A DNA stretch of 64,000 bases from Pomacea canaliculata (taxonomy: Eukaryota; Mollusca; Gastropoda; Architaenioglossa; Ampullariidae). Under the pieces are notes generated by a model. The model ran no database searches. It was not told the DNA's origin and worked only from the letters and a program-made list of their open reading frames with translations. The first letter of the stretch is position 1, and each line of letters opens with the position of its first letter. Made by a program: the position numbers and the translations under genes. Below are positions 1,283-63,310 of the stretch, one piece after another. The stretch is taken from the NCBI RefSeq assembly GCF_003073045.1, contig NC_037600.1:16012352-16076351 (forward strand), given 5' to 3'.

Positions 1283-2499
1283 GTACCACAAAAGTAAGAA
1301 AGCAGCCACAAGTGTGGAGTACCCAGCTTATGGGGTCACTGGCCCCACAAAAGACCGCCTCCCTTCCCCAGGTGACAGGAAGTTGGCACAAAGCGCACAA
1401 ATGTACCACTATCAGCACCAGAAGCAGCAGATGATTGCTATGGAGAAGTGAGTGGCAAGTCTGGACTTCTCCAGCTCTTAACAGCATTCTGGTTGCCAAA
1501 AATAACGCAAGAGGTAGTTCACCTCTAAGTAGGAAAAGAAATAACAGGGAGAGAAAGAATTTGTCGCAAATTATAACTGACTAGCTTTAATATGACTTTA
1601 ATGAGCAGAATAATAGTGCAGAATAATTTAATTTAAAAATGATTGCAGTGGAGCAACAGTAACAAAAGATTCCATTAACTTGTGAAACTGTCTGCAGAGC
1701 TAATGGTGATATGAAACATGATGCATCTGATGACGAGTCGGAAGAAGACAACGTGGAGGGTGACTACACTGTCTATGAATGCCCTGGTCTTGCACCGGTT
1801 CGTTTTTTTTTTTTTTTTATTAAACTTTCTGAGGCAGTTATGCAATTGGTTAATCCATCAACTTTCATTTGGATTGTTGCTAAGCACTACTTTGCAATTT
1901 TTAGCACCAATTTTATCAGTTCTGTCTGTTGAAAATATAAGCAGATTTATGGACATCAGTCATGGATGTTGCATGTGAGTAGCTGGCTTGCCTTCATTGT
2001 TTTAATCCAACTTTATTTTGATGCTATATTTAAATCTACAGGATTTCATGCAGATTTAATTGCAACATGCATAGTTCAGTAAGTGCAAATGTCACTGAAA
2101 GCATCTAAAGGGCTTAAGAGAAGTTTTTAATCTCGTATACCTCCAAATAAATACTGTTAAAAACATAGTTTAGTGCAGGTTATGGCAGGGATTTAAGAAA
2201 AAATCATAAATAACCACTCACAGATATGCCTAGAATGGAACTTCAGTCAAGTGCAGGGTACTGCAAATAGCATTGTTGGTGAGGATACGGTTTATGACTG
2301 TTTGGCAGCAACTCATAGAATCAGGATTTGTTGAGGGATCTTTTATGGACTTCAGAAACTACATTCTCTCCTGAGGGCTATTCATCATTGACTGTTTCAG
2401 ACAGGAGAGATGGAGGTCAAGAACCCTCTTTTTCGAGGGGAGGACACTCCCAGCACCCCAAATAATGATGACACCCAGCGGCCAGCTGGGGGCAACTAG
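1283..2499 (+). CDS. NPDC1: NPDC1, neural proliferation differentiation and control protein 1, C-terminal exons (5' partial)
   Basis: Three exons join in frame: 1283-1447, 1698-1797 and 2401-2499, with stop TAG at 2497-2499. The first exon encodes YHKSKKAATSVEYPAYG and then RKLAQSAQMYHYQHQ. The second contains an acidic run (ASDDESEEDNVEGD) followed by YTVYECPGLAP. The third begins TGEMEVKNPLF. This order of motifs (LAQSAxMYHYQHQ, acidic stretch, FTVYECPGLAPTGEMEV.NPLF) is the signature of the cytoplasmic tail of NPDC1, a single-pass membrane protein linked in vertebrates to neural differentiation and reported to bind cell-cycle and transcription factors. The signal peptide, extracellular part and membrane segment are not in the window. 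Donors at 1448 (gtgagt) and 1798 and acceptors tctgcag and tgtttcag are canonical. The C-terminus (GEDTPSTPNNDDTQRPAGGN) is shorter than the vertebrate one. Identification is firm; the 5' extent is unknown. Confidence 0.93.
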
Positions 2500-5025
2500 G
2501 ACAACTGGGTGGCAGCAAGAGTCGGCTTCTGCACCATGACCTCTGTCCTCTCTTCAAATAGGGAGCACCTGTGGTTATCACCATGGCAACAGTTTCTTCC
2601 CCTCCCCTCAACCATGACGGCTGTTTTTCCCTCCCCTTGTTTTTCCCTCTCTTGCCCTAGTCCTGTGTTTCAACTCTTACCCGTCTTGTGAACCTTTGTG
2701 TGGTGACAGTAATTGTCCAGACAAGCATATATATGTACATATAAATGTATCTTTCTCCATGGAAATGAGACATCCACATTCCTGCATTTGTTTTAAGCCT
2801 TCTCTTGGTTTGAGAAATGTTTGTAAGGACAACTGATTGTTTTACAGAGTTTTTCCTTATTTTTCAATTCTGGTGATGGATAATTTTGTTTTATTTTTGG
2901 TAAGGATTTTACTTTTACAGTGTGCTTTTGCACAGTAATACAGATGGTTCTTCTGTACTTTTTTAAAGAGCGGGACCTTTTGTTGATCAAGTGACAGTAT
3001 TCTCAAAGACTTGTTTAGATTTGGGGTGGGGAAAGTCATGAAATCCTGAAGTATCCATACAGATTTAACAGCCACACATAGAACTTCACATTCCACTTGC
3101 CTCATGGTACTTGTAGTTCCAGATTATCTGCGATATAAAAGATGAAGTGTGTGCACAAACACTTAACAGTTATTTATTTATCAAGATGGGTACCATGATT
3201 GTCCATACTTTTTTTATCTAGTACATTCTGGAATAAGGAAAAATAACTTGTACTTCTTGACAAGGGACTCGTGATGCCTAGGTAAGATTTGAAGATTTTT
3301 ACTTATTTCAAATTTCTACATCTTTCCATGACAGTGATGCTGAATCGGACCTTTTCACTCATGACCAACTTAAGCATTTAACCATTCAATTTAAGCATTT
3401 ACTTTTTTTGCATTGATGTATTATTCTGAGGTCAGTAGAAACAGTAGGTTTATGGGGCTTTGTGTTTCTTGTCCTAATTTGACTGCAATAGAGAATGTTA
3501 TTTAAAGATGTGAATTCAGCCAGAAAAAAATGACTTGTCACCAGTTTGTAGTGTTTATCTTTAACTTTGAGCAGTAGGATTTTCTCTCCCCACCCACCTT
3601 CCTCTGTGCGTGCATGCACACAATTTTTTTTGTTTTTGTGGTGATGGTATGCCTCATTCCATGCTGTACCAACATTTCATCTGCCTGTATTTATTTATTA
3701 ATGTTGATATAAATACATATGTACAGAAGTTGACATGGATTAGGGGTATTCAGATCTCTAATGTTACAAAGCAATGCAGATTCTGTTGTAATGAGTTACG
3801 ACAATACTTCCTGAAGTAATCTGACTGATAAAATGGAGATCTACAAAATCAGAGTTTCATATTTGCTTATGTTCCAGTTTGTTTCTGCAGCATTTTCGTT
3901 GAGTTTTATCCCTTTATTTATTGTTGTTTTTGTTTAAGTCGGTCGAAGATGTGGACCTGCATAGACATTACAGACAGATCTCAGAAACATTACTGAGTCA
4001 AAAAGGGATCTTAATACTAGTTAAATGCTGCTATAACTGTATTGCTAAAGCAGCCTAAAACCGATCATACCAAGGTTGTGCCAACAGGGAGTCCTGCAAG
4101 AACTAATTAATGCAATAATGTGTTGTTAAATATGCAGGATTTTAAAATAGACTATTGAAATTGTTGTTGATTGTCACGATGACAATGTTTGATTGATCAT
4201 GATGGCATGTAGAAATGCAGCAGAGGGGCTTCTCTGTGTTGAGTTTTTTTTTTCAAATTCATTTTGCATTTGAGGAGGAGTAATGGTCTCAGACCCTTTT
4301 TTTAAGTTTCCATGACCAGCAGCTGGAGAAATTGGTAAACTGCATTCTGTTCACCTCCAAAGTTTAAAGCAGCAGTTGGATACTTTTTAAAAATATATTC
4401 TACAGAAAATAGATGGGTGACCAATATGTGTCTTTTTAAACCCAGGTGGGCTTTTTTCATTTACATTTCTGTTTCTGCATTTACTAGAGATCAGACTTTG
4501 GCTGTAAAAAGCTCAACACAGACTTGGAAATATTGTACATAGTGTTGATACATATGGTCACAATTTTATGCTGCATTTCTAGGGATTTGTGATTGTTTGG
4601 AGGGTCCAAAACTAAGACATCAGCTAAGAAAACTGCACTTCTGAAAGTTAACGAGTTAGCATAATGAGCATGACATCTCTGTTCTGCAAGACAAAACACA
4701 ACTGAGTAAAGTTTCTTTTGGTTTTGTGACTGTTGCTGTCAAGATTTCAACAGACCTAGTTTCTTTCCTTTAGGAATAGACCATGTATGCACCATTAGCC
4801 TAGGTTTTTGTGACCTCTAGCCATCGCCTACCCTACACATACACACCCCACTTTGTCAGTGTCTATGGGCAGATCTTTGTGCTCAGAGCCACCCATTTAC
4901 CTGTCTACTGCAAAGTTACAACTTGGAGGTATGGTTCTGAACTCCACCAAAAATGTGAAAGAAAGCTTTCTCCAATGGACCCTGGTATCTCAGCAATATG
5001 AAATAAAACTTTCAGTAGTGCAGCC
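2500..5025 (+). other. Probable NPDC1 3' untranslated region
   Basis: No coding exon was recognised between the NPDC1 stop and an AATAAA at 5002-5007, and the short open frames here resemble nothing known. The simplest reading is a 3'UTR of about 2.5 kb, though several earlier AT-rich sites could also end the transcript. Confidence 0.45.
5002..5007 (+). terminator. Candidate NPDC1 polyadenylation signal AATAAA
   Basis: A canonical hexamer on the coding strand lies downstream of the NPDC1 stop and just before a SINE inserted between the two converging genes. Choice among candidates is by position only. Confidence 0.4.
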
Positions 5026-5086
5026 ATGCTTTTATGTGAGTTTTTGTGTGTGTAAGACAGAATGTGCATATGTTAAGAGGGGAGAG

Positions 5087-5241
5087 GGGAATTGGTGTTT
5101 TACATCAAGCCAGCAACTAAGGCTAAAACAGATGCCACATGCAGAGAAAGAACAGCATGCCCGAGACAAAAGCTGAACCCAGGACAGCCAACCCTCGATG
5201 TATTGGTGAGAATTGCTAACAACTGCTCCACTTGACTGCCA
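5087..5241 (-). mobile_element. tRNA-derived SINE, copy 1
   Basis: This copy shares a long body with the copies at 8150, 37210 and 37450. The shared blocks are ttggtgttttac, agccagcaactaaggct, acagatgccacatgcagaga and aacagcatgccc. It runs on the minus strand, because the tRNA-like head (A-box-like block near the right end, B-box-like ggttca) is at the right. It is diverged and has lost part of the middle relative to the 37210 copy. It lies between the converging 3' ends of NPDC1 and SNAPIN. Confidence 0.7.
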
Positions 5242-5327
5242 GTGCACACATTAAAAAGGCTATAGAATTAACATAAGCTGAAAATTTGACATTCAGACTG
5301 CAAGATCACAGGTAAGATTAAAAATAG

Positions 5328-5862: not shown

Positions 5863-8107
5863 TTACTTAAGCTGAGCAGAGGCGGGCGGGTCCAGCATTG
5901 TTTTGCGTCGTGCTGTTTCCTTGGAGACATTATTCTGAAGTTTGTGCAGTCTTTCCTGTACAGTGAGAAATACAATCAAGGACACAATCTTACACAGTTA
6001 TTACAATGTTAACATAACCTGTTTTGTTTGCTTCGTGAATGAAGAAGTGAATGCACGCAATCATGTAACTTCAGTGACAAAGGATAGCATCTTTTATGCT
6101 TTTATGCTTGTTTCTTTTATTTATTTGTACTCCAAAAACTTGCTGGCTAAACCAACGCAAATGGGTTGTTACAATCTCAACAAAAGCCACACTACCTGCA
6201 CATTCTGCAATATGCTGTTCACCAGCATGACACGGCGGCGAGAATTGTTGAGTTTCTTAACATACGGCTCCAGCTCTACAGGCGTGGCCTCACTTTCTGA
6301 AATCTTCTTAAGGTCTGCATTTTAAACACAGTAAGCATTTCTTCTTGAGAGTTGAGTGATTTTAAAAATCTGTGCCATAGATATGCCTAAACTATAATTC
6401 TGTGCAACAGACAAAACTTATTACGGGACAAACTGAAGAATCATTAAATTATCAGTCAACAGTGCAACTCAGTCTTAGACATAAAAGAAATCATCCTAGA
6501 TATTTATAGCTTAATTTAAAACTGCATGACCACCAAGAAATAATAATTCCCATGGAAAAGAACCAGTCAAAATTCCTTGAAGACTTCATGCATCTTCAAT
6601 CTTACATAATGTGGCTGAGATTGTGTTGACCACAGGCATCCATCAAGGCTGCACTTCAACTTACCATCACAGAGGCTATCAATCTGCTGTCTGAGTTCTA
6701 TCTGACTTTCTCTGCAAAATGCAAACAGTACATTCATCTTTCTTTTCATTCTTCTACCTGCACTTAATATTTTTTATTTTAGAAATATTTCTTCCCAACA
6801 CACTTCACTACTCTCCTCATTATTGAGGTGTTCACAGGTTTCAAAATATTCTCTTCTTTTATCTTCACCACTGTGGGCAGTCCCACATCCTACCCTTTTC
6901 CCCTTGCACTCAAATGACAAATTACTGTGAACCTAAACTAACAGATCAGATTTATATATCTATGAACGGAACTTTGCTATACTCAAGATCCACATCTATT
7001 ATTCTGCCTGTGCAGTTCTTATTCAGAGGAAGGCCTGCTTCAAAGGATCAAAGATAAATTCAGAGGAGGACTTGCTGCCTTGAAGGCACCAAGTACTGCT
7101 GCTTTTCAGGAGATCCTAGTCTTTACTATCATTAAGGACCCTGTTAAATGGGAAGATATTCATGGAAGGACCACTTCCACTATTTGTGACTTACTAGATC
7201 TTCCCACTTTGGTTAGTTCTATTTAGTCCCAACCTCAGTCATAATTTTCTGCATCCAGATCTAACTGCCTATCCAAGTTAACAATCGTCACTAACAGCAA
7301 ATACTTTGCACCAAACCTATAATGCATTATGGCAAGCCTGCATGGTTTGGTAAAGTACTCCAGAAAGCCATAAACGTTGCAGACCTATTAACTCTAAAGA
7401 AAAGAGGCCAAGAAGATAAGCATCTTAGGCAAAGAAAATTGGCTTCTATGAAAAGAAATATGATACTAGCTACTGTTAAAGTCAAAACAGAATATTGAAA
7501 CAAGCTTAGGAGTTGGAAAGCCATTAACCAACTAACCTAATAGAATTTCTGACAAACTAGTTCCATAATTGCAATGTATCCTCTAAAGTTGTTAATACAA
7601 CTGTTAATGAGTTTGTTTCTGACAACGAGATTCGAAAGAAAACAATTTTAATAACATTAAAAAGCTAACTGCAAACTAATAACAAACGGGTTGCTTACCC
7701 TCTCACTGTATGTGAGAAAGTAAATTTAATACCGATTTACATTTGTCTCTTCCTCCACGTAAACAAGATGCCTGTGCAATTTAAATTGTTGATTAACTAT
7801 TCATCTTTCCCCATTTATTTTTAAAGAAAAAGTGTATAAACATGCTTCATTCTAATAAACAATAAACATCAGTTTATCCACAAGTTAAAAGAATGTCACA
7901 CGAGTCACGCGCCGACGCTGTTTCGACATTTGTTTTTCTCGCCGAATAAATAAACAGCTCGTACCTTACTGTTTTCACTCTATCGTCGATTTCATCAACG
8001 GCAGGTTTTAGAAGCTCAAACAGTCCATTTGCAAGGGCATCTCTTTTTCTGGAATCCAAGGAGGCTTCTGCCTCTTTAGCAGACGGCATCCTGTTGACTT
8101 CCGCCAT
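5863..8107 (-). CDS. SNAPIN: SNAPIN, SNARE-associated protein / BLOC-1 and BORC subunit
   Basis: Four exons join in frame on the minus strand: 8107-7965 (ATG at 8107-8105), 6711-6665, 6314-6196 and 5955-5863 (TAA). The product is 133 aa; human SNAPIN is 136. Diagnostic stretches are RDALANGLFELLKPAVDEID, RESQIELRQQIDSLC, VELEPYVKKLNNSRRRVMLV and LQNNVSKETARRKTMLD. These match the SNAPIN coiled-coil helices in order, including the LEPYVKKL..SRRRV.LVN core. In known systems SNAPIN is a small helical subunit of BLOC-1 and BORC, acting in lysosome-related organelle biogenesis, lysosome positioning and synaptic vesicle priming. All splice sites are GT-AG. The start codon is fixed by a TISU-like element around the ATG and the SNAPIN-like length. 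Downstream of BAG6 on the same strand, convergent with NPDC1. The large intron 1 (6712-7964) contains AT-rich and possibly decayed sequence. Confidence 0.96.
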
Positions 8108-8111
8108 CTTG
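8100..8111 (-). promoter_or_regulatory. TISU / YY1-like element over the SNAPIN start codon
   Basis: On the SNAPIN strand the start context is CAAGATGGCGGA. This matches 11 of 12 positions of the TISU consensus SAASATGGCGGC (Translation Initiator of Short 5'UTR), which doubles as a YY1 site in vertebrates. The following GCGGAAGT also resembles an ETS core. TISU genes have very short 5'UTRs, which fits the presence of a SINE only about 43 bp upstream of the ATG. Function here is inferred. Confidence 0.55.
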
Positions 8112-8149
8112 CTAACAGCGTCAGCCTTCAATTTACTTCCCTTGCACAG

Positions 8150-8285
8150 ACTGGATGTCCTGGGTTCAGATCTCGTCTTGGGCACACTGTTTTTTTTTTT
8201 CTCTGCATGTGGCATCTGTTTACAGAGTTGGCTGCCTTGCCGTGATATAGCCTTGGTTGCTGGCTCAGTTTAAAACATCTAATGT
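8150..8285 (+). mobile_element. tRNA-derived SINE, copy 4 (5'-truncated)
   Basis: The plus strand carries the SINE body: gtcctgggttcagatctcg (B-box side), then ctctgcatgtggcatctgtt, tgatatagcc and ggttgctggctc. The A-box end of the tRNA-like head is missing, so the copy is 5' truncated or decayed. It begins about 43 bp upstream of the SNAPIN ATG and is followed within 25 bp by a hAT MITE. Confidence 0.72.
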
Positions 8286-8309
8286 TCCGAGCAATGGTGT
8301 ACATACTGC

Positions 8310-8985: not shown

Positions 8986-8998
8986 TTTGTAAAAGCAC

Positions 8999-12603: not shown

Positions 12604-15600
12604 TCATGATGGTTTGGGCTTAGAGTTAAAGTACTGCTGTGCATTGGGAAACCTGCAACAGAAGGCCAAGGGTTCACTATATGATTGTCAAACCACTCTT
12701 AAAACTGTCATTCAATTATTATAATACCCATAGAACCATAGCCAAGATAAGTCAAGATTATTAGTTAAACAAAGTCTTACTATGACAAGAAGTAAGAAGC
12801 TTATACTCTGTATGATTCTCATCAAAGTTGAATAGTCTAAGTGAAGATGTCCAAGATTAAAAAAAAAAGTTAACATAATGAGCATGAACTGTGCGCAAGT
12901 AAACAGAAATCTTGTAAACTGCTGACTGTCAAGGTCAATGGTGTTAGTTGTACATGTCAGTGTTTCACTGGCGGACACCTTGTGCTGCATGTGATAGTTG
13001 AGGAAGTAAGCAACTGTGTGAGTTGTTTGGAAGGTTCTGACGAATGAGATTTTAAAACTATAAACAGGTGGCCAGTCTTTCACTTCATGATGAAACGGTG
13101 GCTGCTGCGTCAGATCTCATGCTGGGAAATGAAGACTATGCCTGCCAAGCCTGGCATGAACAGATTTTGATTCTATTTTTATCTGTTAAAAAAGAAAATC
13201 AACTGGTTTTTGGAACTTCATTTTTTTTTTTACAAATGACTACAGGTCCCAGCTCAACACCAATGAGAAGGCAGTCCTACTGTATAGCTCTAAAACCTGA
13301 AGAGTGACAAATACCATCAACAACAAGCTGCAGACCTTTACCAACTGATGCCTACGCCATATTCTGGGAATAAGATGGCCTGAAAAGATCTCCAACAGAA
13401 GCCTGTGGAAAAGAACCAACCAGAACGCCGCCAACCAAGACAAGACATCAGAAAGTGCAAATGGGCTGGATAGGACACACCCTGCGCAAACCAGCTGACA
13501 CCACTGGCAAGCAGGCACTTGACTGGAACCCTCAGGGAAAAGGAGAGTTGGGAGACCAAAGCAGACTTGGAAAAGAACAGCAGAGAGTGAGGCAAAGGAC
13601 ATCAGAACCACATGGGCCCAACTGAAGGGGGTCTGCCCAAAGCCGGGTCCGCTGGCGAGGTGTTGTTGCGGCCTTATGCTCCTCAAAGGAGCAACAAGGA
13701 ATAAACTAAACTAAACAGGTCCCAGCACCAGTTTTTCTTTTGTAATATTGGGCATCATATCTGTGTTGTCTTTATTATTCACCATGGATACCAAGGGAGG
13801 TGTTTCTTTCAGCTGGAATATATGTTTGCAAGGATATCACAGTCTCTGTGACCACTTGTGAGTTTGATGCTGAACTACAGCAGACCTCTATGCTAGTCTA
13901 GCATAGGTGTGAGGAGCACGATTTCCACTACAGCCGGAACATTCAAATAGACACTATTCACTGTAAGCGGAAAACTGTGGTAAGTGCATCCCAGAGACCG
14001 TGTGTACCCCAGTAGCTGTACCTGGTTAGCAAACTGAAAACTAAGAATGGTACTCTTATGCTTTTATTGAGTTACTAGACAACTCAGACTGGGAGGGATG
14101 AATGTTCTTGTTGAAGTGAAATAGTGGTTAAATGAACTGTGTGCCAGGGCTGGAGCTGCCCATTCCTTGTAGTTATAATTAAAAGTCGATGTGTGTATGA
14201 AACTATTTGGGGAATGAATGGATATGAAAGCATAGTATAGTTGTATTATTAACATTAGACAGAGCCCAAAGTGGCAGATTTGTTTTGTATTGAGGTTGAA
14301 TAAAAGGATGCATGCATATTGTGTGCCTGTGTGATTTATGAGAGGTATACATGTCATGATACGGGCAAGAAGCCAGGGAGGTCAGATATACAATGATGGC
14401 CAAGACTGTGATGTACACAGATACAAGAGACAAACTCTAGTTTACTGGTAAAGCTAAAAAAGTCAAGGTGAGGGACAAAGTTTAAGCAAGCCCACCTATC
14501 AGCACTGTAGTCATCATCGCTAGCAAGTCTGTTGGCTAGTGATCGCTGCACCTCCGCCTCCAGCATGTTCTGCAGTTCCTCTGCATCAGAAGCCTCTGCT
14601 GCCAAGTTGTCCACGCTACTGACTGGCTCAACACCTGCCTGAGTTGCTGCTCTTTTCACTGCTGTTGGCAGGTAGTCGGCCATGTTTGAAAGGTTGTTAG
14701 GTCGATCACAAGTCATTAGCTGAGGTCACAAAAAAGAAACAAAAATCATCCATGACAATTTAAACATGTTTTTCAGGTATATCTTGAAGTTTCAAAAATG
14801 ACCATAATACAGCTTTTTTGTAAATGCAGGACGCAGAAATGTGATCAATATATTATGGTACAACCATCAGAAGATCTGCTTACCCTACGGCGTTTGGGTG
14901 GCATCCCCTGAAGATAGGCATCACTGAGAGGAGCATGCGAATGATGGGTCTTCTGTCGCTGGATATCCGTCTCAATGATAGGAACCCACTCCTATATAAA
15001 TGAACATTTGAACACCACAATGAATTCCATAGTCTCCTATACAAACAAACATATGAACTCCACAGTTTTGTATATCTTAGAAAGAGTCAACCTAAGACTA
15101 ATTTTTAAGATATGCAGTGTAAAGTATTTATGGTAATACTGACTACACACTGCTACATTTTTCACAGGGACCAGGTCGTTGACCTTGTAACAAAGTGCAA
15201 CTATGATGACTTTGAAAAGTACACCGAGAAGAGAGTACATGGAGAGGGAAGTGTGTCAGGCAGTGATTGACATTAAACAAAATATATGACACAAAAGTGA
15301 AAAAGAGGTGCAACCGAGTGCATAACAGATTGGAAGAGAGAGTCATATGCTGCGAGTGTGAGAGAGTTTTGTAAAATACTACCATAAGCATGCTGTCTAC
15401 ATCAACTGCATGTGCATGTTCTTTTGTGATATAGATGTTTTTCGCTAGAGAACAATTATTTCTGTCCCTTCTTGTAAGTTGACTTAAGAAGTGGATTTGT
15501 ATTATAGATGGAGACATTTTATATTTTCAAGATTATGTAGCATTTGCAATTTGAATGCTGTTTAGTCAGATGAGTACAAAGTTGAAATAATATGTAAAAC

Positions 15601-18600
15601 AGCGGCCAGCAAAGTGTTTTGTATGGAGAATAGGAGACCATGCTCATACACAATTAAGATTTGGCTAATTGCATACATCCAGCCTACTTTCAACAGTTGG
15701 AAACTTTCAAACAAAGTTGGCAGAAAGGTAAGTAGGGTATCAGAGTATATGACAGATACCAGTCTGAAGTTGGACAGTACTTGCTTGGAGATACAGCAGT
15801 TATAATTCTTACAAGACTTCCAGTTGCCTGCTGTAACTAGTGTGACAGTTTTTTGACAAGTACAATTTCTGGAAAGCAACATTCTGCTAGAGAAAAAATC
15901 TTGACCATGAGAGGACAAATTGTGTCAAAAGTGTTTATAGTAGAGATGACAACTAGTATTATGGTGATATGTATTTTTTTTTCACTCCAGTATCAGGGTC
16001 ACATAAAATACAAGTTCCAGCATGGCAAGACAAGCATGACAAGTCAAGTGAAAAGTTGGCTGAAAGGTTAAGTTGTTAATTCACAAAAGGACATGGAACT
16101 CACTGGTGAGACAACCTCCTGCCAATTCTCCTCTCCATTTCTAGGACTTCTTGTTGCAGATGATGGGGATGCTGCTGAAGAATCGTGGTTGCCATTTACC
16201 AAGGCCTGCCTCAAGCCATTGACTGAGGGGCGTTCCTCTTGCCTGCCATCTGCCCTCTGAACATTTCTGGTCAGGTCCAATGTACGGGGAGCCTGCTCAT
16301 ACAAGGAAGATGTTTTTAGTGGTGACAAAGAAGAAATCACAATACCCTTGCACTAAGCCCTGATCCCTGGAAAGCAGGATTCTACCATTCACAGATCATA
16401 TTAAAAAAAAGAGAGAGAGAGAACAACATGACACGATAAAAAGTAATATCTTGAAGGAATACAGACGTCAAGGTGAGATGGATTCTTTATCCTACAGCAC
16501 TGAGTGAAATGTGGAATGAACAGTTACGTTTATATTTACATGCTTATCTTTTGTGCTTCTCTTTGTGTTACTGAAAGCCACAACAAATACTTCCCACATG
16601 AATCAGCGACAGAGCAAACCACAAGCTTGCAGATGCAACTGGCAGTTACCTGAGCAGTCGGCCTTGCTGTGCTTCCATTACCAGGTGGTGCTGCCTCTAC
16701 CTCCATGACATGTTGTGAAGACGACACTTCAACATTCCTTGAAACAGTGCTAGCAGCAGCTGTAATGGACCCTGCAGCTGTGGTTGATGGTCGCACGATG
16801 TAAGACTGCACTTCTGACTCTGGAATGGACACACTGCTGCGGAACGTAGACAGCTGTGTGAGTGTCATTGAAGCCATCCACTGCCTGATGAGTGGGTTCA
16901 GACCAGAGGTGATGCTTGCCTACAACACAAACTTCTTACCCTAAGACATAGCCCACTGATGTCATTTCAGACTTTTATGCACATCTCTCTTTTTGACAAT
17001 ACCAAAGGTAGTTTTAACCTCTTCTCATTTTTTTTTCGTTTTACTGCTCTTGTAAGGAAACTTTTATTTATCTTTATATGCAAGCAAACAGAAACTACCT
17101 TATTGTATGGTAGGATGCAAATGAATGATTCTTTCCATAGCAAGACCGAACAGAAACAAGGAAAAAATGTGACAAAACAGGCAACCATGCCAGAATAACA
17201 TCCTACTGAACCCAGTTACTTAAGTTTTTGATTCCCAGGCTGCAGGTAGGCTTAAAATGCATATAGTTCAGTGCATGTCAATGAGGTCAGCTGTGTTATG
17301 CCCCTCACATCTATTGGTTTAGTCTTTCACCCTTTCAGGTATGAAGAAATTGAAATAAAGTACAAATAGAGGGTCACATCGCTTAGCCCATGTGGCTCAT
17401 GGTGTTGAAATGATATAATCAATAATCCTAACCTCTAAGGATAAAAAAAAATTAAAAGAAGCCCATGAGTCATCAATGATGCCTCTAAAACATTTCAATT
17501 CATAGACTTACTGATAACAATGACAATAATAAATTATGACGACTATAAGCCCTGCTGCTCAATCGATACAGTTTCAGAGGTCGCACGCTTTAGTGAAGCA
17601 AAGAAAACATTATGCACCTCAATGCTTGTATACTGTTGTGTACTTGTACACGTTCATATAGATTCATGTGTTAATGAATTATGAAGGCTATTATGTTCAG
17701 TATCAAAACACCTATTGTTACGAGAAAAGATGATTGTTCATATTAAATTAAGCAACGAAGCATAAGTCCCATGCGCCTATGTCGTCATCAATGGCTCATT
17801 GCGGGTCCTAAATCCACGACGCCAACCTCTTCAAGAAACTGAGTCTTTGCAGTCAAAGATATTTCAAAAAAAGCACTTTATTTACAGTTTATACAACAGT
17901 GTCCTCTTGTATCCATGCTGGCAAATAGGCGACATGCTGGAAACACAATCATCAGCTACACCTGCTGAAATTATTCTAGCAGCAACTCCTGCTACAGACC
18001 ACAGCGACAACTGATTCACAACTCTGACCCAGCGACACATGCCTAACATAACAAGCTGGTTTCAAGAAAAGTGTGATGCTTGAAACCCTCACTCCCTTAC
18101 AACCGAAATGTTACAGGACAGCACTTATTCTTACTTTATTTTTTATTACTCTGTTATTCCCTCATAAAGACTTCTTCAAGCAAAACTTACCAGTCGGCTT
18201 TGTACCAGATTGTTGAAATCAGCCTGGCCCCCACGTAGACATGCTGGCATCAAGACAATGAACTCCCCCAATGCACGACGCACACTATCATACAAGCTGC
18301 GTCCAAAATCTGAATCAGTGTCTGCAAAAAGAAGTTAACCCTATATCTCCAGAAGATTGCAGATACCTTTACCTGGAACAATGATGGTTCTCTGCAGCAA
18401 GTTCTATGCACCTCCAGCATCTGCTTGCTGATAGTTACTCCTGTCATCTGGAGCCATGAGTCACACACATATAACACACAAAGGCCCACATTTTATAACC
18501 AAGACAAATGAAGAGCTAAGACTAAGAAGGTCAGAACATTGAAAATGGTCCCTGCTTTGCCTCTGGTTCATAGCATTAGCCCTTGTACGGTACGTATGAG

Positions 18601-36718: not shown

Positions 36719-37209
36719 TTTCCAAGGGACTTTGTTGTGGCACTACTTTAAATGTTGTCAGATCTTGCAATTTTCGATGGTCTCAACCTATAAATGTTAT
36801 AACAATGTTATGCTTTTGCTAAAATTGTAGAAGAGGATTAAAACTTGTTGCTGCTTTACACTATTACAATTCTGCTCAAAGTAAAATGCGACTTGCAAGC
36901 AGCTGTGTTCAATACATCATACAGGATGTTACATTTACAAAATGCTGGATTTTTTAAAAATAACTCAAGATTACTGCATAATCAAAGCATGTACCTAATT
37001 AGATACATCAAATTCTCACAGCAAAAAGACATTAAATCCACAGTGAAAACAAAAATAAAAAAGGAGTATACATGATGGAAAAATTAAAGAATTCAAAGAG
37101 TAAACACTACATCATCATCATTGTTAATTGGATGTGAGGATGTTTTTAAAGCAAATTTTTTCTTATTGACTATAAAACTGGTAAGTAACATATGACCAAA
37201 CAGTCTTAA

Positions 37210-47308: not shown

Positions 47309-50109
47309 CTAGTCACGTCTGAGTGGGTATCTTTCAGTGGTGATGCCAGTTTTAGAGATGACATTTATGACAACACTATCTCCAGTGTGGATGTCTCGCT
47401 CTGCAGCTGAAGTGAACACGTCTCGCACCAGTGCCACTGCTTTTTCTTGGGACAGCGGGACCTGACTGACTCCTGTCTGGTTCTTAAAGCCAATCTGCGT
47501 AAAGAAAATAATATGTAACCCAAGACCTTAAGGCAACTTAAAAGACAACAAAACTCGGGCATTTTCACCGCATAAAAAAAAAGGTTTACCATTTAAAACC
47601 AATGGCGTGTTTTTAATACAGAAGCTTAATAAATTAAATCACACATTTCTCTTCAAACCACTCAAAACTAAATCCTATATATTAGTTATAGGAAAAGTAT
47701 TAAGTTGTTCATTAAATGAAAATTGGGTCTTCATCCTTTTCTTAAAGTTGAGATGGGAAATGTAATACTCAAATGTATCTTGTGTACAAGAAGGCTATCT
47801 GCAAAGATTAAGGAATTAGTACCTTGCTTTAATTTGGAACCAATCATTTGAAACTTATTCTGCAATCAGGCTAACCTTCAAGTGCCTAATTCTTCCCACC
47901 AATATTAAAAAATACCTGATTATCCAGTAAAGGCTGAAGCATAGCACTTGCTGAGCCTCCAGCACGATATGTTTCTCTTTCGTAAGATCCCACTGGGTCA
48001 AAGCTAAACACACATCCTTTACCTGAATGAAAAAAAGGCATTCCAACAGATTCATAAAAAATATTCACAACTCGTACCGTTTAGCATTTAAAGCACATTA
48101 ATAATCATAAAAATGTACAACTCGCTTTCAAACAATACAGGAAGTCAAGCACACACAGAAAATAGATTGTCGGTCCCCAGGTAATCTGATGCTATTCTGA
48201 AAAACTAAACAGTCATCAAGCTTATTTACATTTTACAAAGTGACAATGTACTCAGATACATGTAAATCTTGTATCTATCATTTCTGACAATGGTATTGCA
48301 AACACATAAATGTGTAAGCTTTACAATGACAAGACATGGTACGCATGTTACTGACCTTCAGCATCTAGACCAGCCACAATGTTGTAAACATAATAAGGGA
48401 AAAAACGCCGGTAATATAAAATAGTAGAGAGCATGGCTGCCACAGAAGATGTATCCATTTCTTTGTTGTGTAACTGTTCAAACATCTGTTGTACACAAAC
48501 AACAATTATTAAATTAGCTTACTTGTAACAAAGAAATCAGTTGATTTCTAAGTAACACAACAACATGCTAGTTTAAATTTCCATTTCTTCTTAAGACTTA
48601 TAATACTTAAGTGGCATGTGCATTTGAGGATCCTTGGAAAGGGTAGTAGAACAGGATGTCAACATTTGCACTTACTGAAGAATATCATCAGTTGCATAAT
48701 GTAGCACTCAAAGGTTGCTGAAGAATTACACTCAAGCAAAGATATCAAAACAAAAATGCTGGGCTTTATTTAATGACATTAAACAGTAATATTTTAAAAT
48801 ATCTGATCCAAACTATTGCTTTTCTTGGCTGGAAAAACACTTGATCACCTGAAATAAAGAGAAAATGAAAATACCTACCATGAGTCTGGCCTGTAACACT
48901 TTAGTCAGAGTGAGAACATCACCATGAAAACCACAGCTGCCAACCACAGTTGTCCCAGTTCTGAAATGTTATAATAACAAAGAAACTTACCATGATCTCA
49001 AAAGTCGAACAACAATAAAAATACTGAATATACAAATATCAGGTATTTTAAAAAAAACTTGGATTATCCTAAACTTTCTTGTAAGCTAGTTGATTTCAAT
49101 GATCTTTTAGCTCTACTCTGCAAATCAAAATCTTTTACAAAGACTCAAAAAGAAGGCCCAGAAACCTATTGGAAACTTGCAATGGGTGATTCTTCTCCTC
49201 CTTCCAAAGATTTTACTACAAAATAAATGAGAGGGAAAGGGTGAAGATGCTGCAAGGATTTTTATGCACACTATACAATGTGTAACGAACTGCAGATCAC
49301 ATGTTTCACAGAAAGGTAACACAATAAGCATAAACTCTACTGCAAATCACTGTAACAAATAAGCTGAAGCTATGTATTTTTTCTGGATGCTTGTCAATCT
49401 AAGACACGTATAGAGATGCCAAGTCTACACCAGGTCTTTTCAGGTTTATGTAATATATTAAAGTTATGGATACTCACAGCTCATTTATTCTGGGAGTGTC
49501 ACGAGACAAAATGGAGTAGCCCTGACTAAGACGGGTATCTGATGCTATAACAGCAAAATCTTCACCAGCAATTGCTAGTACTGTCCTGTGGTGCAGCATG
49601 AGGTAAAGATGTTTAATATTCAGAAAACAATGTGTAAATTTGTTATCCATTTAGTGGTCAGATTCTATGCACATAACCTAACCCTGAATTACACCAAACT
49701 GGTAAAAATTTAATCATACACATTATTTAACATTTCCTTCTTAGTTTAAACTGTGACAAGATTATAGGTGCTAAAGCCCCTTGTCCTTTGTTCTGTAATT
49801 ACAAATACTAGGCAAATATCTTCACAAGATTAGACTGTCAGTCAACAATATGTCAATAAGTTTGAAAATAACATTAACGACTTATACATCACCTAAAGAG
49901 AAGAAAACATTGAGTTTTGTATCCATTATTCTGTTACACTCTTGGCTAATTAGAAAGAAGCATTCTTTACACGAATAAACAAGGTTGTGGGTCTAAATAT
50001 ACACCATTTCTAAAATAACATACCCTCCATTGTCGTCATAAGGAGAGAAGGGAGTTTCCTTTCCCGCTCCAAACTGTGACATGTGTAGATGATCTGGTGT
50101 GGCAAACAT
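47309..50109 (-). CDS. PSMB1: PSMB1, proteasome subunit beta type-1 (beta6)
   Basis: Six exons join in frame on the minus strand: 50109-50024, 49585-49478, 48960-48879, 48485-48356, 48022-47916 and 47494-47309 (TAG). The product is about 232 aa (human 241). Motifs are [93 protein letters not shown] and [13 protein letters not shown]. The last exon covers [20 protein letters not shown] and [12 protein letters not shown]1 is the non-catalytic beta6 subunit of the 20S core. I chose the upstream in-frame ATG (50109-50107, [14 protein letters not shown]) because an in-frame stop lies further upstream. A second ATG at 50082-50080 would give 223 aa; the mature core is the same. It is divergent from LSM2 across under 300 bp. 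Confidence 0.96.
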
Positions 50110-56900: not shown

Positions 56901-59900
56901 CATTAATGTAAATGGAAAAGAAAAATATAATGGCAAAATAAGTGAAGGATAAAAAAAAGCATTTTTCTTTATCAAGCAAGCCTTATTCTCATATCCCTTA
57001 AGTGTTCTTCAGCAATCCCGCTCACTTACCTCGGGAGTCCCTGTTCCAAATACGCACACTACAATCTCTTGACACTGTGGCTATCAATGGCTGCTCAGAA
57101 GAGGGCAGGAAGATGCATGCTTCAACAGCTTCACGATGACCTTTGAACTCATGGATAAGAGCAGATGTCTTCAGATCCCATAACTGAAATGTGGCAGAAA
57201 AAAGGGAGATTCTCAGTTCTATAATGGATTTTAAAAAAAAACGTAAAGAAGTGATGTAAAAATAAATACATTTACAGGGCATCTGCTAAGGCTAAATTCT
57301 TTGGGGTCCCAGGGACCCCTTCTTCAGATTTTTAAGGGGGTCCCTGTTCTTCGCCCAAATTTGAAGGGGACCCCATTGACGAAAACTGAAGGGGTCCTCC
57401 GAACTTTTAATGCGTACTGTACGCAATTTTTTGCGTAAGCAGAAGCCCTGCATTTATAGTCTTCACAGTAGAGAGCATATTAAGAGGGTAACACTACAGC
57501 TGAAAGTGTACAGTGCAAATACAACACTCACGGTGGCTTCACAGCCATTGCCTCCAAATCCATTGCTGCACGTAAGGCAATAGTTGCCATCAGGTGAAAT
57601 GTCACAGCTCATCTGGATGTATTGTTTTTTGGTAAACGTGCGAACCACGGTCATAGTTCTTGTGTCATAGATCCTGAAAAAAAGTACAATAATTAACTCA
57701 CTGACAATACTGCTGCAATGCAAAGTATTTGGATTTGTTAAAACAATAGAAGTTATATATAATGAAAACAAAATGTCACTGCCATTATAGCAAGGTTTTA
57801 ATGAAATAAAATTTCCTCAGAAAGATGAATCTCAAAACCCATATAATAAATTTCATGCCACAGAAATTTGCATAAATCTACTCTTTAAAAGCTTTCCTAA
57901 CTGGACATGTATTGGCAAATATATGACAATTTCAAATTTGTTATGACTATTGCATAAAATGTCAGATAACATAATCAGCAACATCCACCAAATAACAGAA
58001 TGACATTGGTATGTACTACGATCTGTTTACATGTAAATTCCATTACAAATCTATGTATGTATATAGTCTATATACCTTTAAAATATAGATGCCTGCTTAA
58101 AGCTAACCTGTCCTGTTACTAAAAGTATTCCACTTTGTAGCTAGCAGATGTCGAACAATGAAGCCCTGAACAGCACACAAATAATTATTGAACCCCGCTG
58201 TTATTCAACAATCAGCGCAATAAATCAAAGATGCTCTCATCTTTTGGATGCACATGATAGCAATCATATGGTGTTACATCTGGGACCATATATGTATGTC
58301 ATTGACTAGGAATGCAGGCATTATATCAAGAAGTGTAGGGGAAGGAAAAGTAGCATACAGAGAATTACCTCACTTCTTTATCTTCACCTGTCTGTAAAAC
58401 TTGCTCAGTGCCTGGAATCCACTTCACATCTGTAACCTTTGGATGAAAAAAAGAAATCATTTAAAAGAGGCAGCAGAAGAATCTTCAATGCCACTTTCAT
58501 AACACACCTGCTGAACAATCTAATCAAGTTTCCATCCAGCACAAAAACAATGTGATGCAAATTTCTCTTCATAGCATTTGTAACCCTTTTACTTCCTTGT
58601 GTATTCACTTTCATCAATTACCAGCAAGAACACTGACAGATGGCTATATTTTTTAGTCTACAGTTTTTAGGAACAACCTACATCTACATACAGAATTTGT
58701 CCGTAAAAAATAACAATACTTAACAGCATCTAAGAGGCAATGAACACACTTGGCAGTCTAAAAGTAGCAAAACATATGGACAAATGGATGCTTGGGACAG
58801 AATCCAAAGAAAAGTCTGAAAGCTGCTATGTTAGAAATATTGACCAGTGACAGATGAAGTATATATGTGAGGTGGTGTGGGGAGAGCACTCAGGTTGAGG
58901 AAATCTTCAAAGAGGAAGCCTCAGGCACATGTGTGAGATCATAGTCACCAGAACACCTTGTTTAATTTTTTTTTTTTTGTGTGGGGGGGAAATGTCCAAG
59001 ACAGATGACACAAACGGTGGAGCATTCATAAAATGGTTACACAAAGATGTGAGTTCCCCATATCTGTGTGCATCCAGATGCATTTGAGTGTGGAGCACAC
59101 AGCAAATTAGCTGGGTTTTTTTTTTCTACAATCTTAACACGCTTCATAAGGCAAAAGCACCAACCAGATTTTGAGGGATGTTATTTTGGCACAAACAAGT
59201 TCCTCTTTCCACATCCCAGATTCTCACTGAATTGTCACGAGAACCACTGCACAATAGGGTATTGTCTGAAACAAATAAATAATCCTAACTAAATGATAAA
59301 AGAGCAATGTACTGTAGTGTCCAGCATGTAAACACTTCTTCTAATAAAATGTCCTCATGTCATATAATTATGATGGAAAATATGACATGAACATCACAAA
59401 AATTCAGACTTAACTGATAAAAGATAGAGCAATAAAACAAATATTCCTAAGTACTGAAAATCACACATTAAACAGAGTAGGACACATTCCTCTCTCTCTG
59501 GTTTTCACAACATTAATATCAACCCATTTTATTCGTTATTATCATTACATGTGTTAACTCATTGCGCTTTCCCTTCCTAAAACACATTTTTATGTCCCTA
59601 AACAGCCTTTGATTAAATCCTTTGCACATTCATGCACATTATTTAGAGGCAAACCCCACATTGAATGACATGCCTTCATCAAAGTAGTTATCTTAAGTGA
59701 CTGCCTTGTCAAATTTGATGCAAATTGTTTCACCTAGACAAATCCTCTGATGAGTGCCAGACAAACACAACTATCTTCAGGTAGGCTTAAAAGATCAAGC
59801 TTTGTGGAAGAGACAGAGGCACTACAGAGACAACACTAGAAACAGCTGCCTGCAAAAGTAGAGAACCAGGTCCCCCCTTTCGATCCTCCTCCATGGGAAG

Positions 59901-62133
59901 AGAGAGAATTGCCTTACCATCTGCATCACAATTTTACATTTCACAATCAAGGATAAACACAGTGATATAAGCAAGAAAACACTGACGCTTGCCTTCCTAG
60001 AAGAAAAGTACCCCCAAGAAGCATGGATGTGGGCTTACACAGAAAGCCATCCAAAATGGAGGAGCTGGAGTATACATCCAGTACCCTGACAGACATAGGC
60101 AGATGATAGCCATTTGAACTGCACCAACTGCAGAGCCAAAGTTGAAGCCCAGTGATCTGTGCAGTGAACAGTGTCAGCAGCAGCAATACAAGCATATCCT
60201 ACAGGATGGTAGGCTTCTCTAAGAACTGAAGACAAAAGTCTGGTTGTTACCAATGCCCCTCAAGACCAAGCTGTCTGAACCTTAGCAGATGACTGACAGT
60301 TTTATCTCAAAAGCTGGCCTTCAAGTGGGAAAAGAAAATAGGCAAAAAAGAGCAACTTAATTCTTCTGCCAAAAAATGCAAAACAAAACGAAACCTAAAA
60401 GGCTGCAGAAACTTAGAGTACTATCTACCCAAAGGTTAAGAAATTCTTTCAGGAAGTTAAATGACTACTGAAACTATATTTGATGAAAAAATGTGATTAT
60501 TTCCTTCTCCCACATATATACCTTCATTTAAGTGAATAGCAGTCACAACCAGATCATGGCCAATGAATTCACGCAAGCTGTGTGAGTTCCCCCTCTGCCA
60601 CATTTTGATGGTCTTGTCTCGAGATGCACTGAAGATGCCACCACAGCTGGCTCCATAGGTGACCTGCATGTACAAACCATGAATCAAGATCATCTTCACT
60701 AATTTCTCAATAAGAGAATACTAAATGTGAGAATTTTTCAACACTATCAAGAGCTTGAATATAGCAATTCCTGTCTAGATAAACAAAATTACTGCATAAG
60801 AACAAAAAAGTTTTATAATAGCAAAAAAAAAAAATTAATATTTTGCAAGAACAAAATGTCTCCTAAGAGTGATTACCTCTTGGTTTTTTATTCCCAAATT
60901 GCTTCTGCACAAGCAAAAGATATCTAAGTTTGACAATATACCTGTTAATGTAGCTTCCTTCCACACACTTAATAACACATGTGGTTGCACCAACTCCATA
61001 TGGGAATGCATGCAAACACCCCGTAAAAAAAATCTCTAGCTATCTTAGGTAAGCTTACCTTAAGAAAAACATGAGTACTATGTTAGCCATATGCAATATA
61101 CATACTTTTTTTCCAATACCTTAGTAACTTCTCTATCATGTCCTGTCCATCTGTCTTCTAGTCGCCCATTTTGATAGTCATAGAGTGCAATAGTCTGCCC
61201 AGAAAGAACCAGAAATGTGAAATGTTTAAAATTATTTAGCTACAGCTTACAAAATTCTTATTAAAATTGTTTCTTAGCATGAGTATTTATAACTACTAGA
61301 TCAACCGCTTTTTCTGTTGTACATACATATTTATTCTTTTAGTATTCTAATGAATGACAATTTTTTTTATATTTTCAAGCTTTTGAAGTGCTAAACACTT
61401 TTTTGACATAAGAAAATGGTGTCTCTGATGAGCAAATATTTCAAAAATGTTTTTCAAAACAACTTATATCAGTAGAATATAGTTTAAAATTACATGATGA
61501 ATAAATCCACACCTTGTCCTTACTACCGGATATACACAGCCCTGGTTGTAAGGATGCCAGACTAACAACAGCATCAGAGTGAATTCTAGGTCCTGTCATG
61601 GTGCTTTTCTCCAGAACTTCTTCCCCATCCACCTGATTCCCTTCCTGCCTTCTATCACAGTCAATGTATCGTAAAACACACACGCAAAGAGAGAGAAAAG
61701 ATTTTAAGACAGATTAAAATTTGTAAACGTCACTAGAAAGTATATCTGGATCTAAAAAATATCGTTTATCAACAGGTTTTTTTTTTTTACATACGCTTTA
61801 TAATTAGTACTATATACTCAGTTATTATTGCATTTTTACAAGTTAATGATACGGATCCATTTAGGCGTCTATAAGAAATCAATCTTATAAATATAGTATT
61901 GTTCATTTCTATTTCCAAATTAAAGTGAATGCAATTTATAATTATTCAGTTTAAATAAGTCAAGCATGTGACTCGATAAATTCAATATGAAATGAAAAAT
62001 AGGTGCGTCGATACACAAACTGCGAAAGCTAGAAATATGGTAAAAACTGAAGGACTCAGCAAACTGTGCAAAGCAAACGACACAGATACCTGTCGTATTT
62101 AAGGGTCTTCCGTTTGCTCAATAGTTTTCCCAT
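53934..62133 (-). CDS. WDR31: WDR31, WD repeat-containing protein 31
   Basis: Ten exons join in frame on the minus strand: 62133-62090, 61651-61513, 61194-61120, 60663-60522, 59265-59165, 58436-58369, 57673-57532, 57183-57030, 56868-56799 and 53961-53934 (TGA). The product is 320 aa (human about 367). The N-terminus MGKLLSKRKTLKYDR resembles human WDR31 and fits an N-myristoylation signal (G2, S6, basic run). WD repeats follow: HSDAVVSLASLQPGLCISGSKDK; GHDREVTK then FSASRDKTIKMW; GHDLVVTAIHLNE then CSGSRDNSVRIWDVERGTC; VTDVKWIPGTEQVLQTGEDK then IYDTRTMTVVRTF; LWDLKTSALIHEFKGHREAV then ATVSRDCSVRIWN. The end, GPLTSLIAYEGGR plus HVYRVVIL, would close the propeller. WDR31 is reported as a ciliary trafficking factor working with ELMOD and RP2. 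The tiny last exon, across a 2.8-kb intron, rests on frame and splice match only. Confidence 0.9.
55150..55860 (-). pseudogene. Broken coding remnant, unknown helical protein, in WDR31 last intron
   Basis: The minus strand has protein-like text in three frames in succession: FNMSKPRHASFYPVFPAYDA, VACQEKLYRAELMNTARK; then HAFHREQEKLVHMNLQEKLI, QCKQQLKEARLATNCADTVK; then NFMYQRSALLDEIRYQKLVL, LSETVNQLHQSF. The charged Gln/Glu/Leu-rich composition suggests a coiled coil. Frame changes and stops occur within a few dozen bases, too close for introns, so I read it as a decayed gene or retrocopy. I cannot name the parent with confidence. Confidence 0.5.
57275..57450. mobile_element. Unclassified MITE with 6-bp target duplication
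   Basis: A 176-bp element has imperfect terminal repeats: CAGGGCATCTGCTAAGGC at the left, and the right end reads CAGGGCTTCTGCTTACGC when reversed. CATTTA directly flanks it on both sides (57269-57274, 57451-57456). Inside are repeated ggggtccc/gggacccc blocks and the palindrome gcgtactgtacgc. It has no coding capacity. The CAG terminus is hAT-like but a 6-bp duplication is not typical of hAT. It lies in a WDR31 intron. Confidence 0.75.
60121..60185 (+). repeat. Dispersed repeat, shared with 38395-38460
   Basis: The second copy of the block gcaccaactgcagagcc...gttgaagcccagtgatctgtgcagtgaaca..gtcagcagcag in a WDR31 intron. Boundaries are not defined and no family is known to me. Confidence 0.6.
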
Positions 62134-62598
62134 TATTTTCTGACATTCTTTGGCAGATGTTTATAGTTTTGCTTTACATTGCTTAAATTATTCCAGACAG
62201 CGCTACGCTGCCGGTGGTTGTTAGGTACAGTTGTCTTTCTTATGTCGTCTGCATGGAATCACGGAGTTTTATAATTTGACTCCGCGATGGAATTGAACAA
62301 TTTTCTTTTGAAAAATTGTACAGTTTTAGCACAATTTTATAATATAGTTATGATGATTTTTCTGTCTTCAGATAATTCACGTTTATGAAATAGTTTTGGG
62401 GCTAATATATTTTATGGTCAGTGGGAAGAACGTTCCAAGGGAGGTAGTCAGATACAGGAAAAGCCAAGTTGTTAGTGCCCCTGTCAAGGTGGCGCTACCG
62501 ACTTCCTGTCTAACGTCGGGTGCACAAACGCAGCCTGCTCAAAGTTTATAATAGGATAAAGCTATTTAGCTGAGAATTTGAAGAAACTTTTTCATCAG
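62134..62598. promoter_or_regulatory. Putative bidirectional WDR31/PRPF38B promoter and PRPF38B 5'UTR exon
   Basis: WDR31 begins at 62133 on the minus strand. On the plus strand a donor (TTCATCAG|gtttgt, junction 62598/62599) probably ends the noncoding first exon of PRPF38B, since its first coding exon has an acceptor at 63139. An ETS-like ACTTCCTG lies at about 62501-62508, just before the likely PRPF38B start. Start sites are inferred. Confidence 0.5.
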
Positions 62599-63154
62599 GT
62601 TTGTATTTAAGTGATTACTTTGCTTTTACATCTCGGTTTGTGTTTATGATAGCTAACTGCCAAGTTTATTTAAGTTATTGATCAATTGTTGAGACTTTTC
62701 TTCGCAAGTTCATGGCGTTTTTAACCCGTCTCTCCTTAGTGTTTGTGTATTTTTAATCTGAAGTTGTGTGTTTAGCCTTCTAATGAAACTTTGGCTTCTT
62801 TCTATTTTAATGTCCTTCTTTTGTTTTCAGACAACACTGCAATTAGTGCTGTTTATAAGGATTTATAGTATGAATGATACCTAATGTTATAATAAAAATA
62901 ATAACATAATAGAATGTAGTTTTATTCATAGAGCATCTTTTCTACCACTGAAGGGAAACTCAAAGCATTTCACGTATAAATTTTCAGTTATCTGAAAGTG
63001 CGTGAGTACAAGTTGTATGAAAACATCTAAATGTACTTCACAAAGTTAATTTTTATTCAGACACACAGTACCATGAGGAAACTGACAACCACACGAACGT
63101 GATATGAATACAGAAACACTTTTATCTTTTTCTTTGTAGTGAGAGGCTTGAACG

Positions 63155-63310
63155 ATGCCTCCTAACAACCCTCTTACAGTATGGGGCAATGAAAAGACAA
63201 TGAACCTCAACACCCTTATACTGACCAACATCCAGTCATCTCCATATTTCAAGGTCAACTTGTTTGAGTTGAAGACCTACCATGAAGTAATTGATGAAAT
63301 ATATTACAAG
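63155..63310 (+). CDS. PRPF38B: PRPF38B, pre-mRNA-splicing factor 38B, first coding exon (3' partial)
   Basis: One coding exon (exon start 63140 after tctttgtag; ATG at 63155) encodes 52 residues: MPPNNPLTVWGNEKTMNLNT, LILTNIQSSPYFKVNLFELK, TYHEVIDEIYYK. Then comes a donor gtaaat at 63311. This is the start of the PRP38 domain. The phrase WGNEKTMNLN..ILTNI.SSPYFK is characteristic of PRPF38B rather than PRPF38A. The low-complexity N-terminus of the human protein is absent. PRPF38B is a splicing factor of the PRP38 family; vertebrate forms carry a long Arg/Ser-rich tail. Remaining exons lie beyond the window. Confidence 0.93.

What the first reader, a model, noticed from the sequence alone, without database searches (positions are those of the whole stretch)
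1283..63310. Compact invertebrate remnant of the proto-MHC linkage group
Seen: NPDC1, SNAPIN, BAG6, a GPANK1-like fossil, EDF1, PSMB1, LSM2, WDR31 and PRPF38B lie within 62 kb. Known: in human BAG6, GPANK1 and LSM2 are in MHC class III (6p21.33); NPDC1 and EDF1 are both in 9q34.3 and WDR31 in 9q32; SNAPIN is 1q21.3, PRPF38B 1p13.3 and PSMB1 6q27. Regions of 6p21, 9q33-q34 and chromosome 1 are recognised MHC paralogons. Inference: genes now split between paralogons were neighbours before the vertebrate genome duplications, and this animal still shows the intermixed ancestral order.
Basis: partly seen in the sequence, partly recalled or inferred. Interest (0 to 1): 0.85.

Follow-up and report, generated by a model that had tools for sequence, protein, structure and literature searches.

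The report
Snail chromosome matching MHC gene regions
The nine genes are really there, and they most likely sit together because this whole snail chromosome descends from the ancient chromosome that later gave rise to the human MHC region and its sister regions; the 62,000-base stretch looks like an ordinary, shuffled slice of it rather than a preserved miniature MHC.

Summary
All nine reported genes are found; eight look intact in the exons recognised, the GPANK1-like one is a broken copy inside a BAG6 intron. The window lies on contig C11 (24.3 Mb) of a 440-Mb genome, probably the apple snail Pomacea canaliculata (inferred). I placed recalled human marker segments in the genome. Of 30 scorable markers from human 6p21.3/9q32-q34 or four-fold MHC families (PBX, RXR, NOTCH, BRD, PRRC2 and others), 26 are on C11; 0 of 9 from single places on chromosome 1, 6q27 or 19p13.11, and 0 of 15 controls, are. 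So C11 carries the MHC-paralogon linkage group, but markers run from 0.44 to 20.24 Mb: the conserved unit is the chromosome, not this 62 kb. SNAPIN and PSMB1 give no support, PRPF38B is undecided, and the intact GPANK1 is on C1. Shared ancestral linkage is supported; 'compact' and 'ancestral order' are not. Mollusc-vertebrate linkage conservation is already published (PMC7269912, PMC8302630; passages). A clean case of a known kind, with one weak hint of residual local order.

The parts
1283..2496 (+). NPDC1-like gene, 3' part (human 9q34.3, recalled)
   Evidence: Pfam NPDC1 5.7e-12 and 7.8e-6 on two exons, profile positions 241-323 of 352; stretch 2392-2496 by eye; that the gene begins left of the window is inferred
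5866..8269 (-). SNAPIN (human 1q21.3, recalled)
   Evidence: tblastn 50-79% identity over three stretches; first exon at 7877-8269 by eye
14357..36720 (-). BAG6, from the first recognised exon (about 36.7 kb) to the BAGS-domain exon (human 6p21.33, recalled)
   Evidence: tblastn, best E 7.4e-9; Pfam Bag6_BAGS 1.3e-5; first exons by eye
20311..20705 (-). 110-bp repeat pair (93% identical) inside BAG6, overlapping two similar exon-like frames
   Evidence: self-BLAST, translations
35291..36285 (+). GPANK1-like pseudogene, antisense inside a BAG6 intron
   Evidence: tblastn E 8.8e-11 to recalled human GPANK1; alignment to the intact C1 copy with many frame breaks
40402..46047 (+). EDF1 (human 9q34.3, recalled)
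   Evidence: tblastn 1.2e-24 and 1.0e-14 on two exons, weak E 0.018 and 0.053 on two more; last exon by eye
41616..44176 (-). Reverse-transcriptase-like element pieces in an EDF1 intron
   Evidence: Translations recognised by eye; no Pfam match for the one piece tested
47312..49584 (-). PSMB1 (human 6q27, recalled)
   Evidence: tblastn, five stretches, 45-78% identity
51097..52278 (+). LSM2 (human 6p21.33, recalled)
   Evidence: tblastn, three exons 88-100%
57034..61713 (-). WDR31 (human 9q32, recalled); 3' end probably near 56.8 kb
   Evidence: tblastn with recalled WDR31, five stretches between 57034 and 61212, best E 2.4e-15; WD40 matches; first exon by eye
63152..64000 (+). PRPF38B, 5' part (human 1p13.3, recalled); continues beyond the window
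   Evidence: tblastn 87%, Pfam PRP38 2e-12; continuation in L022, PRP38 E 0.0023, below Pfam's cut-off

Best explanation
The window is an ordinary slice of a chromosome that descends, largely intact, from the bilaterian chromosome ancestral to human 6p21.3 and 9q32-q34 (the core MHC paralogons). Exchange between chromosomes is rare, so the gene set has stayed together; inversions within the chromosome shuffled the order. In vertebrates two genome duplications followed by different losses left BAG6 and LSM2 on one copy (6p21) and NPDC1, EDF1 and WDR31 on another (9q), while in the snail they still mingle. Shown here: gene content, and chromosome-wide sharing of markers. Inferred: the history, which rests on published mollusc-amphioxus-vertebrate comparisons. 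No immune function and no selection for the cluster are implied.
For: 26 of 30 scorable 6p21.3/9q32-q34 or four-fold-family markers on C11 against 0 of 15 controls (Fisher 1.1e-8), C11 being 5.5% of the genome. Markers span 0.44-20.24 Mb, uniformity P = 0.41. SURF4 and RPL7A 12.5 Mb apart. Published: amphioxus and scallop chromosomes keep whole linkage groups with scrambled order (PMC7269912, passages); proto-vertebrate chromosomes conserved in scallop (PMC8302630, passages).
Against: 4 of 30 core markers lie elsewhere (RPL12 C3, RPL10A C6, RING1/RNF2 C1, RNF5-like C4), and 0 of 9 single-place chromosome-1, 6q27 or 19p13.11 markers are on C11. Six marker pairs lie within 64 kb against 1.7 expected (P = 0.009; cut-off chosen after seeing the distances), so some local order may survive. 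No other animal genome could be searched. The background share of C11 genes that map to 6p21/9q34 was not sampled. Markers were hand-picked from recall, and only part of the candidates was scored (39 of 76, 33 of 133, 35 of 651, 38 of 93).
Confidence: 0.9

Rival explanations
1. The 62 kb is a compact, order-conserved relic of a proto-MHC gene cluster, kept together by selection or by lack of breakage.
For: 5 of the 8 intact genes have human orthologues in 6p21.33 or 9q32-q34 (recalled), perhaps 6 with PRPF38B; PKN, STXBP, RPL7A and EHMT lie within 0.4 Mb to the right. Marker pairs within 64 kb: 6 against 1.7 expected (P = 0.009); within 2 Mb of the window 8 against 4.3 (P = 0.05).
Against: Markers spread over 20 Mb of C11; excess near the window not significant at 0.5 and 1 Mb (P = 0.09, 0.16). 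Other spots on C11 pack markers as tightly: DDX39B-VARS 14 kb, CSNK2B-POLE3 about 2 kb, BET-SURF4 45 kb. At least SNAPIN and PSMB1 look like outsiders.
Confidence: 0.06
2. Coincidence: nine unrelated conserved genes that happen to have MHC-paralogon cytobands.
For: All are broadly conserved genes; SNAPIN and PSMB1 do look like unrelated neighbours.
Against: 26 of 30 core markers on the same contig, 0 of 15 controls.
Confidence: 0.02
3. For the GPANK1 piece: it is the decayed original gene, marking an ancestral BAG6-GPANK1 neighbourhood, and the C1 copy is the one that moved.
For: GPANK1 lies close to BAG6 in human (recalled); a random landing inside BAG6 is unlikely.
Against: It is nested antisense in a BAG6 intron; similarity ends near a splice-acceptor-like site upstream of the C1 reading frame, as in a processed copy, though no poly-A tract was seen. 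Differences are alike at the three codon positions (0.17, 0.21, 0.21), so it probably died soon after duplication, which does not tell the direction.
Confidence: 0.4

Closest known systems
Chordate and bilaterian ancestral linkage groups (Simakov et al. 2020, PMC7269912; passages read)
   Same: Whole-chromosome conservation of gene content with scrambled gene order, shown there between amphioxus and scallop
   Different: Here tested on one snail contig with hand-picked markers; which lettered group it is was not established
Proto-MHC / bilaterian pre-MHC region (PMC1945033 and PMC10751288, passages; Danchin and Pontarotti 2004, title only, in the reference list shown)
   Same: PBX, RXR, NOTCH, BRD, VAV and PSMB7 linked together
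   Different: Spread over about 20 Mb, not a compact region; the single-place chromosome-1, 6q27 and 19p13.11 markers tested are not included
Proto-vertebrate chromosomes of Nakatani et al. 2021 (PMC8302630, passages)
   Same: [quoted passage not shown] absence from C11 of the tested chromosome-1 single-place markers is in keeping with mixed ancestry of those arms
   Different: Their data are vertebrate, amphioxus, scallop and Trichoplax; this is a snail, and NKC/LRC genes were not tested here
20 molluscan linkage groups in Ampullariidae (PMC13336756, passages)
   Same: n = 14 apple-snail chromosomes derived from 20 ancestral molluscan groups with fusions
   Different: That paper was not searched for MHC genes; the passages seen give no assignment of C11

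Membership tests
Linkage group ancestral to 6p21.3/9q32-q34 (proto-MHC linkage group) | Framework genes PBX, RXR, NOTCH (named so in PMC10751288) on one chromosome | tested here: met
   All three on C11, at about 17.17, 17.71 and 19.11 Mb
Linkage group ancestral to 6p21.3/9q32-q34 (proto-MHC linkage group) | Excess of 6p21.3/9q32-q34 orthologues against control genes | tested here: met
   26 of 30 scorable (35 tried) against 0 of 15, Fisher 1.1e-8 (markers)
Linkage group ancestral to 6p21.3/9q32-q34 (proto-MHC linkage group) | Chromosome-1 and 19p13 paralogon orthologues also included | tested here: inconclusive
   0 of 7 single-place chromosome-1 or 19p13.11 markers on C11 (ILF2, RPS27, PSMD4, UFC1, APH1A, TAF13, RPL18A); but families with chromosome-1 or 19p13 members (VAV, STXBP, GPSM, ABL) are on C11
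Compact conserved gene cluster (microsynteny block) | Member genes concentrated in the block rather than along the chromosome | tested here: not met
   Markers span 0.44-20.24 Mb, uniformity P = 0.41
Compact conserved gene cluster (microsynteny block) | Same gene order in other invertebrates | not testable with these tools
   No other animal genome was available to search
BAG6-GPANK1 ancestral neighbourhood | Functional GPANK1 beside BAG6 | tested here: not met
   Copy beside BAG6 is broken; the intact 414-residue frame is on C1

The most novel reading that the evidence does not exclude
Beyond chromosome-scale linkage, this chromosome keeps fragments of the ancestral local order: RPL35-ARPC5, DDX39B-VARS, BET-SURF4, and a dead GPANK1 left in place beside BAG6, so the ancestral neighbourhood that became the MHC class III region could be partly read from gastropod chromosomes.
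Probability: 0.25. Interest if true: 0.45.

Novelty: new member of a known kind. Interest (0 to 1): 0.27.

Why it matters
It gives a clear single-genome check that gene sets of human 6p21.3 and 9q32-q34 were one linkage group before vertebrates, while the single-place chromosome-1 genes tested do not belong to it. It also warns that a run of MHC-paralogon genes in a short invertebrate window can reflect the whole chromosome rather than a preserved cluster.

Tried and rejected
Rejected: a special compact block; SNAPIN and PSMB1 as MHC-paralogon evidence; a PSMB1-TBP-PDCD2 neighbourhood, known to me in other animals (recalled): TBP is on C8 and PDCD2 on C5. On checking this report I withdrew the claim that PRPF38B gives no support: it is undecided, since VAV, STXBP and GPSM families are on C11 and TAF13 is not.

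Dropped before counting: BARHL (homeodomain hits at 12.41 and 13.56 Mb on C11, 72-76%, orthology unsafe; it stood in the 27 of 31 and was removed); LHX3, LMX1, NDUFA8 and AGPAT gave no assignable hit. Weakly assigned but kept on C11: PHPT1 (54% against 40-42% elsewhere), POLE3 and ATP6V1G (30 residues), EHMT (57-60% on C11, though a single 38% stretch on C9 has more bits) and FLOT1 (50-68% on C11, though the best single stretch, 52%, is on C4). The split into core and other markers was made by human place after the results; pooled, 26 of 39 are on C11 against 0 of 15 controls. Close-pair tests with other cut-offs, BARHL included: 2, 5, 7 and 14 pairs within 10, 50, 100 and 500 kb against 0.3, 1.4, 2.9 and 14.3 (P 0.03, 0.02, 0.03, 0.55).

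One search failed because a translation held stop codons. Rfam and tRNA scans were empty; two short tandem arrays were found. Paper searches; the one for BAG6, GPANK1 and synteny together found 0 papers.
Full report
What is there. The window is bases 16,012,352-16,076,351 of contig C11 (24.3 Mb) in a genome of 440,159,624 bases and 24 contigs. A published Pomacea canaliculata assembly has 440.1 Mb in 14 chromosomes, the longest 45.4 Mb and the shortest stated as 27.2 Mb (PMC6129957, passages). Here C1 is 45.4 Mb and C9 27.2 Mb, but C11 and C12 are shorter (24.3 and 23.7 Mb), so the fit is good in total and longest chromosome, not in the stated shortest. That the animal is this snail is my inference. 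The proteasome family search did not list the window's PSMB1 exons, although tblastn finds them. A genome search with segments of the eight intact genes returned 28 matches (45 of 50 candidates scored); one lay outside the window and its right flank, a 42% WD40 stretch at 1.58 Mb of C11.

The GPANK1 piece. Its longest frame finds an intact 414-residue frame on C1 at 12.01 Mb, 57% identical, plus one marginal hit on C3. The C1 frame matches recalled human GPANK1 at 34% over 267 aligned columns, E 1.8e-45. The window copy has many frame breaks, lies on the plus strand inside a BAG6 intron (exons at about 36.7 and 34.85 kb, recognised by eye), and its similarity to the C1 copy ends near a splice-acceptor-like site upstream of the C1 frame. 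Differences per codon position are 54/325, 68/322 and 68/322: no sign of a long working life after duplication. Whether it is a copy that landed there or the decayed original cannot be told here.

Is the linkage real? I placed recalled human segments by six marker searches (44 markers) and two control searches (15 genes). In some searches only part of the candidates was scored (39 of 76, 33 of 133, 35 of 651, 38 of 93); all were. Of 35 markers from 6p21.3, 9q32-q34 or four-fold MHC families, four gave no assignable hit and one (BARHL) was dropped as unsafe; of the other 30, 26 are on C11: CSNK2B, RPS18, RPL7A, SURF4, PBX, BET, EHMT, PRRC2, FLOT1, RXR, ARPC5, SSNA1, PHPT1, ALAD, POLE3, ATP6V1G, DDX39B, PSMB7, SET, RPL35, NOTCH, VARS, GPSM, VAV, STXBP, ABL. 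Not on C11: RPL12 (C3), RPL10A (C6), RING1/RNF2 (C1), RNF5-like (C4). Controls on C11: 0 of 15. Fisher 1.1e-8; C11 holds 5.5% of the genome. EHMT, FLOT1, PHPT1, POLE3 and ATP6V1G are the less certain assignments.

What does not clearly belong. Markers with a single human place on chromosome 1 (ILF2, RPS27, PSMD4, UFC1, APH1A, TAF13), at 6q27 (TBP, PDCD2) or at 19p13.11 (RPL18A): 0 of 9 on C11. So SNAPIN (1q21.3) and PSMB1 (6q27) should not be counted as proto-MHC genes. PRPF38B (1p13.3) is undecided: TAF13 from that band is on C6, but VAV, STXBP and GPSM, which have members there (VAV3 in PMC1945033; others recalled), are on C11. Published definitions do count 1p11-p32, 1q21-q25 and 19p13 as MHC paralogons (PMC1945033, passages), and families with members there (VAV, STXBP, GPSM, ABL) are on C11, so those arms are of mixed ancestry by these results. 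Nakatani et al. 2021 call the hypothesised proto-MHC chromosome that joins MHC, NKC and LRC an artefact of later fusions (PMC8302630, passages). Pooling core and other markers, 26 of 39 are on C11.

Local or chromosomal? The 26 markers run from 0.44 to 20.24 Mb; uniformity is not rejected (P = 0.41). Within 0.5, 1 and 2 Mb of the window there are 3, 4 and 8 against 1.1, 2.1 and 4.3 expected (P = 0.09, 0.16, 0.05). Pairs within 64 kb: 6 against 1.7 expected, P = 0.009, including RPL35-ARPC5 (adjacent also in human, recalled) and DDX39B-VARS; the cut-off was chosen after seeing the distances, and a uniform null ignores gene density, so this is a hint only. SURF4 and RPL7A, neighbours in human (recalled), are 12.5 Mb apart. 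The conserved unit is the chromosome, in shuffled order, as published for amphioxus and scallop (PMC7269912, passages).

Flanks. 100 kb on each side was read. Right: the rest of PRPF38B, then PKN about 25 kb past the edge (Pkinase_C 1.5e-14; tblastn to recalled PKN2, E 7.6e-17; human PKN3 is 9q34.11, recalled), then several frames alike by eye, the one scanned matching PML_C and RNase_T. Left: no gene recognised; of four frames scanned, three had no Pfam match and one a weak match below the cut-off (DUF7668, E 0.06); a 16.8-kb segment is repeated at 95% identity, and there are 100 N. So the neighbours support the linkage on one side only.

Verdict. A clean example of a known kind.

Noticed in passing
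C11:15,912,352-16,012,351 (L012-L021), left flank: A segment of about 16.8 kb occurs twice at 95% identity about 48 kb apart, with further repeats and 100 N: a recent duplication or an assembly artefact.
   Followed up: partly
L029-L031 (C11:16.15-16.18 Mb): Several frames alike by eye; the one scanned (L030) matches the PML C-terminal domain (PML_C 4.5e-16) and the RNase_T exonuclease domain (1.2e-8): an apparent local array.
   Followed up: partly
window 20311-20705: A 110-bp repeat inside BAG6 at 93% identity overlaps two similar exon-like frames, as if an exon had been duplicated.
   Followed up: no
C11:7,438,168-7,451,664 and C11:10,337,290-10,341,799: Close pairs POLE3-CSNK2B (9q32 and 6p21.33 in human, recalled) and RPL35-ARPC5 (neighbours in human, recalled).
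   Followed up: partly
C11:1,518,354-1,543,336 and C2:20,761,842-20,801,148: Clusters of long open frames (up to 1361 and 1789 residues) that match the ankyrin part of the NOTCH query at 28-37%.
   Followed up: no
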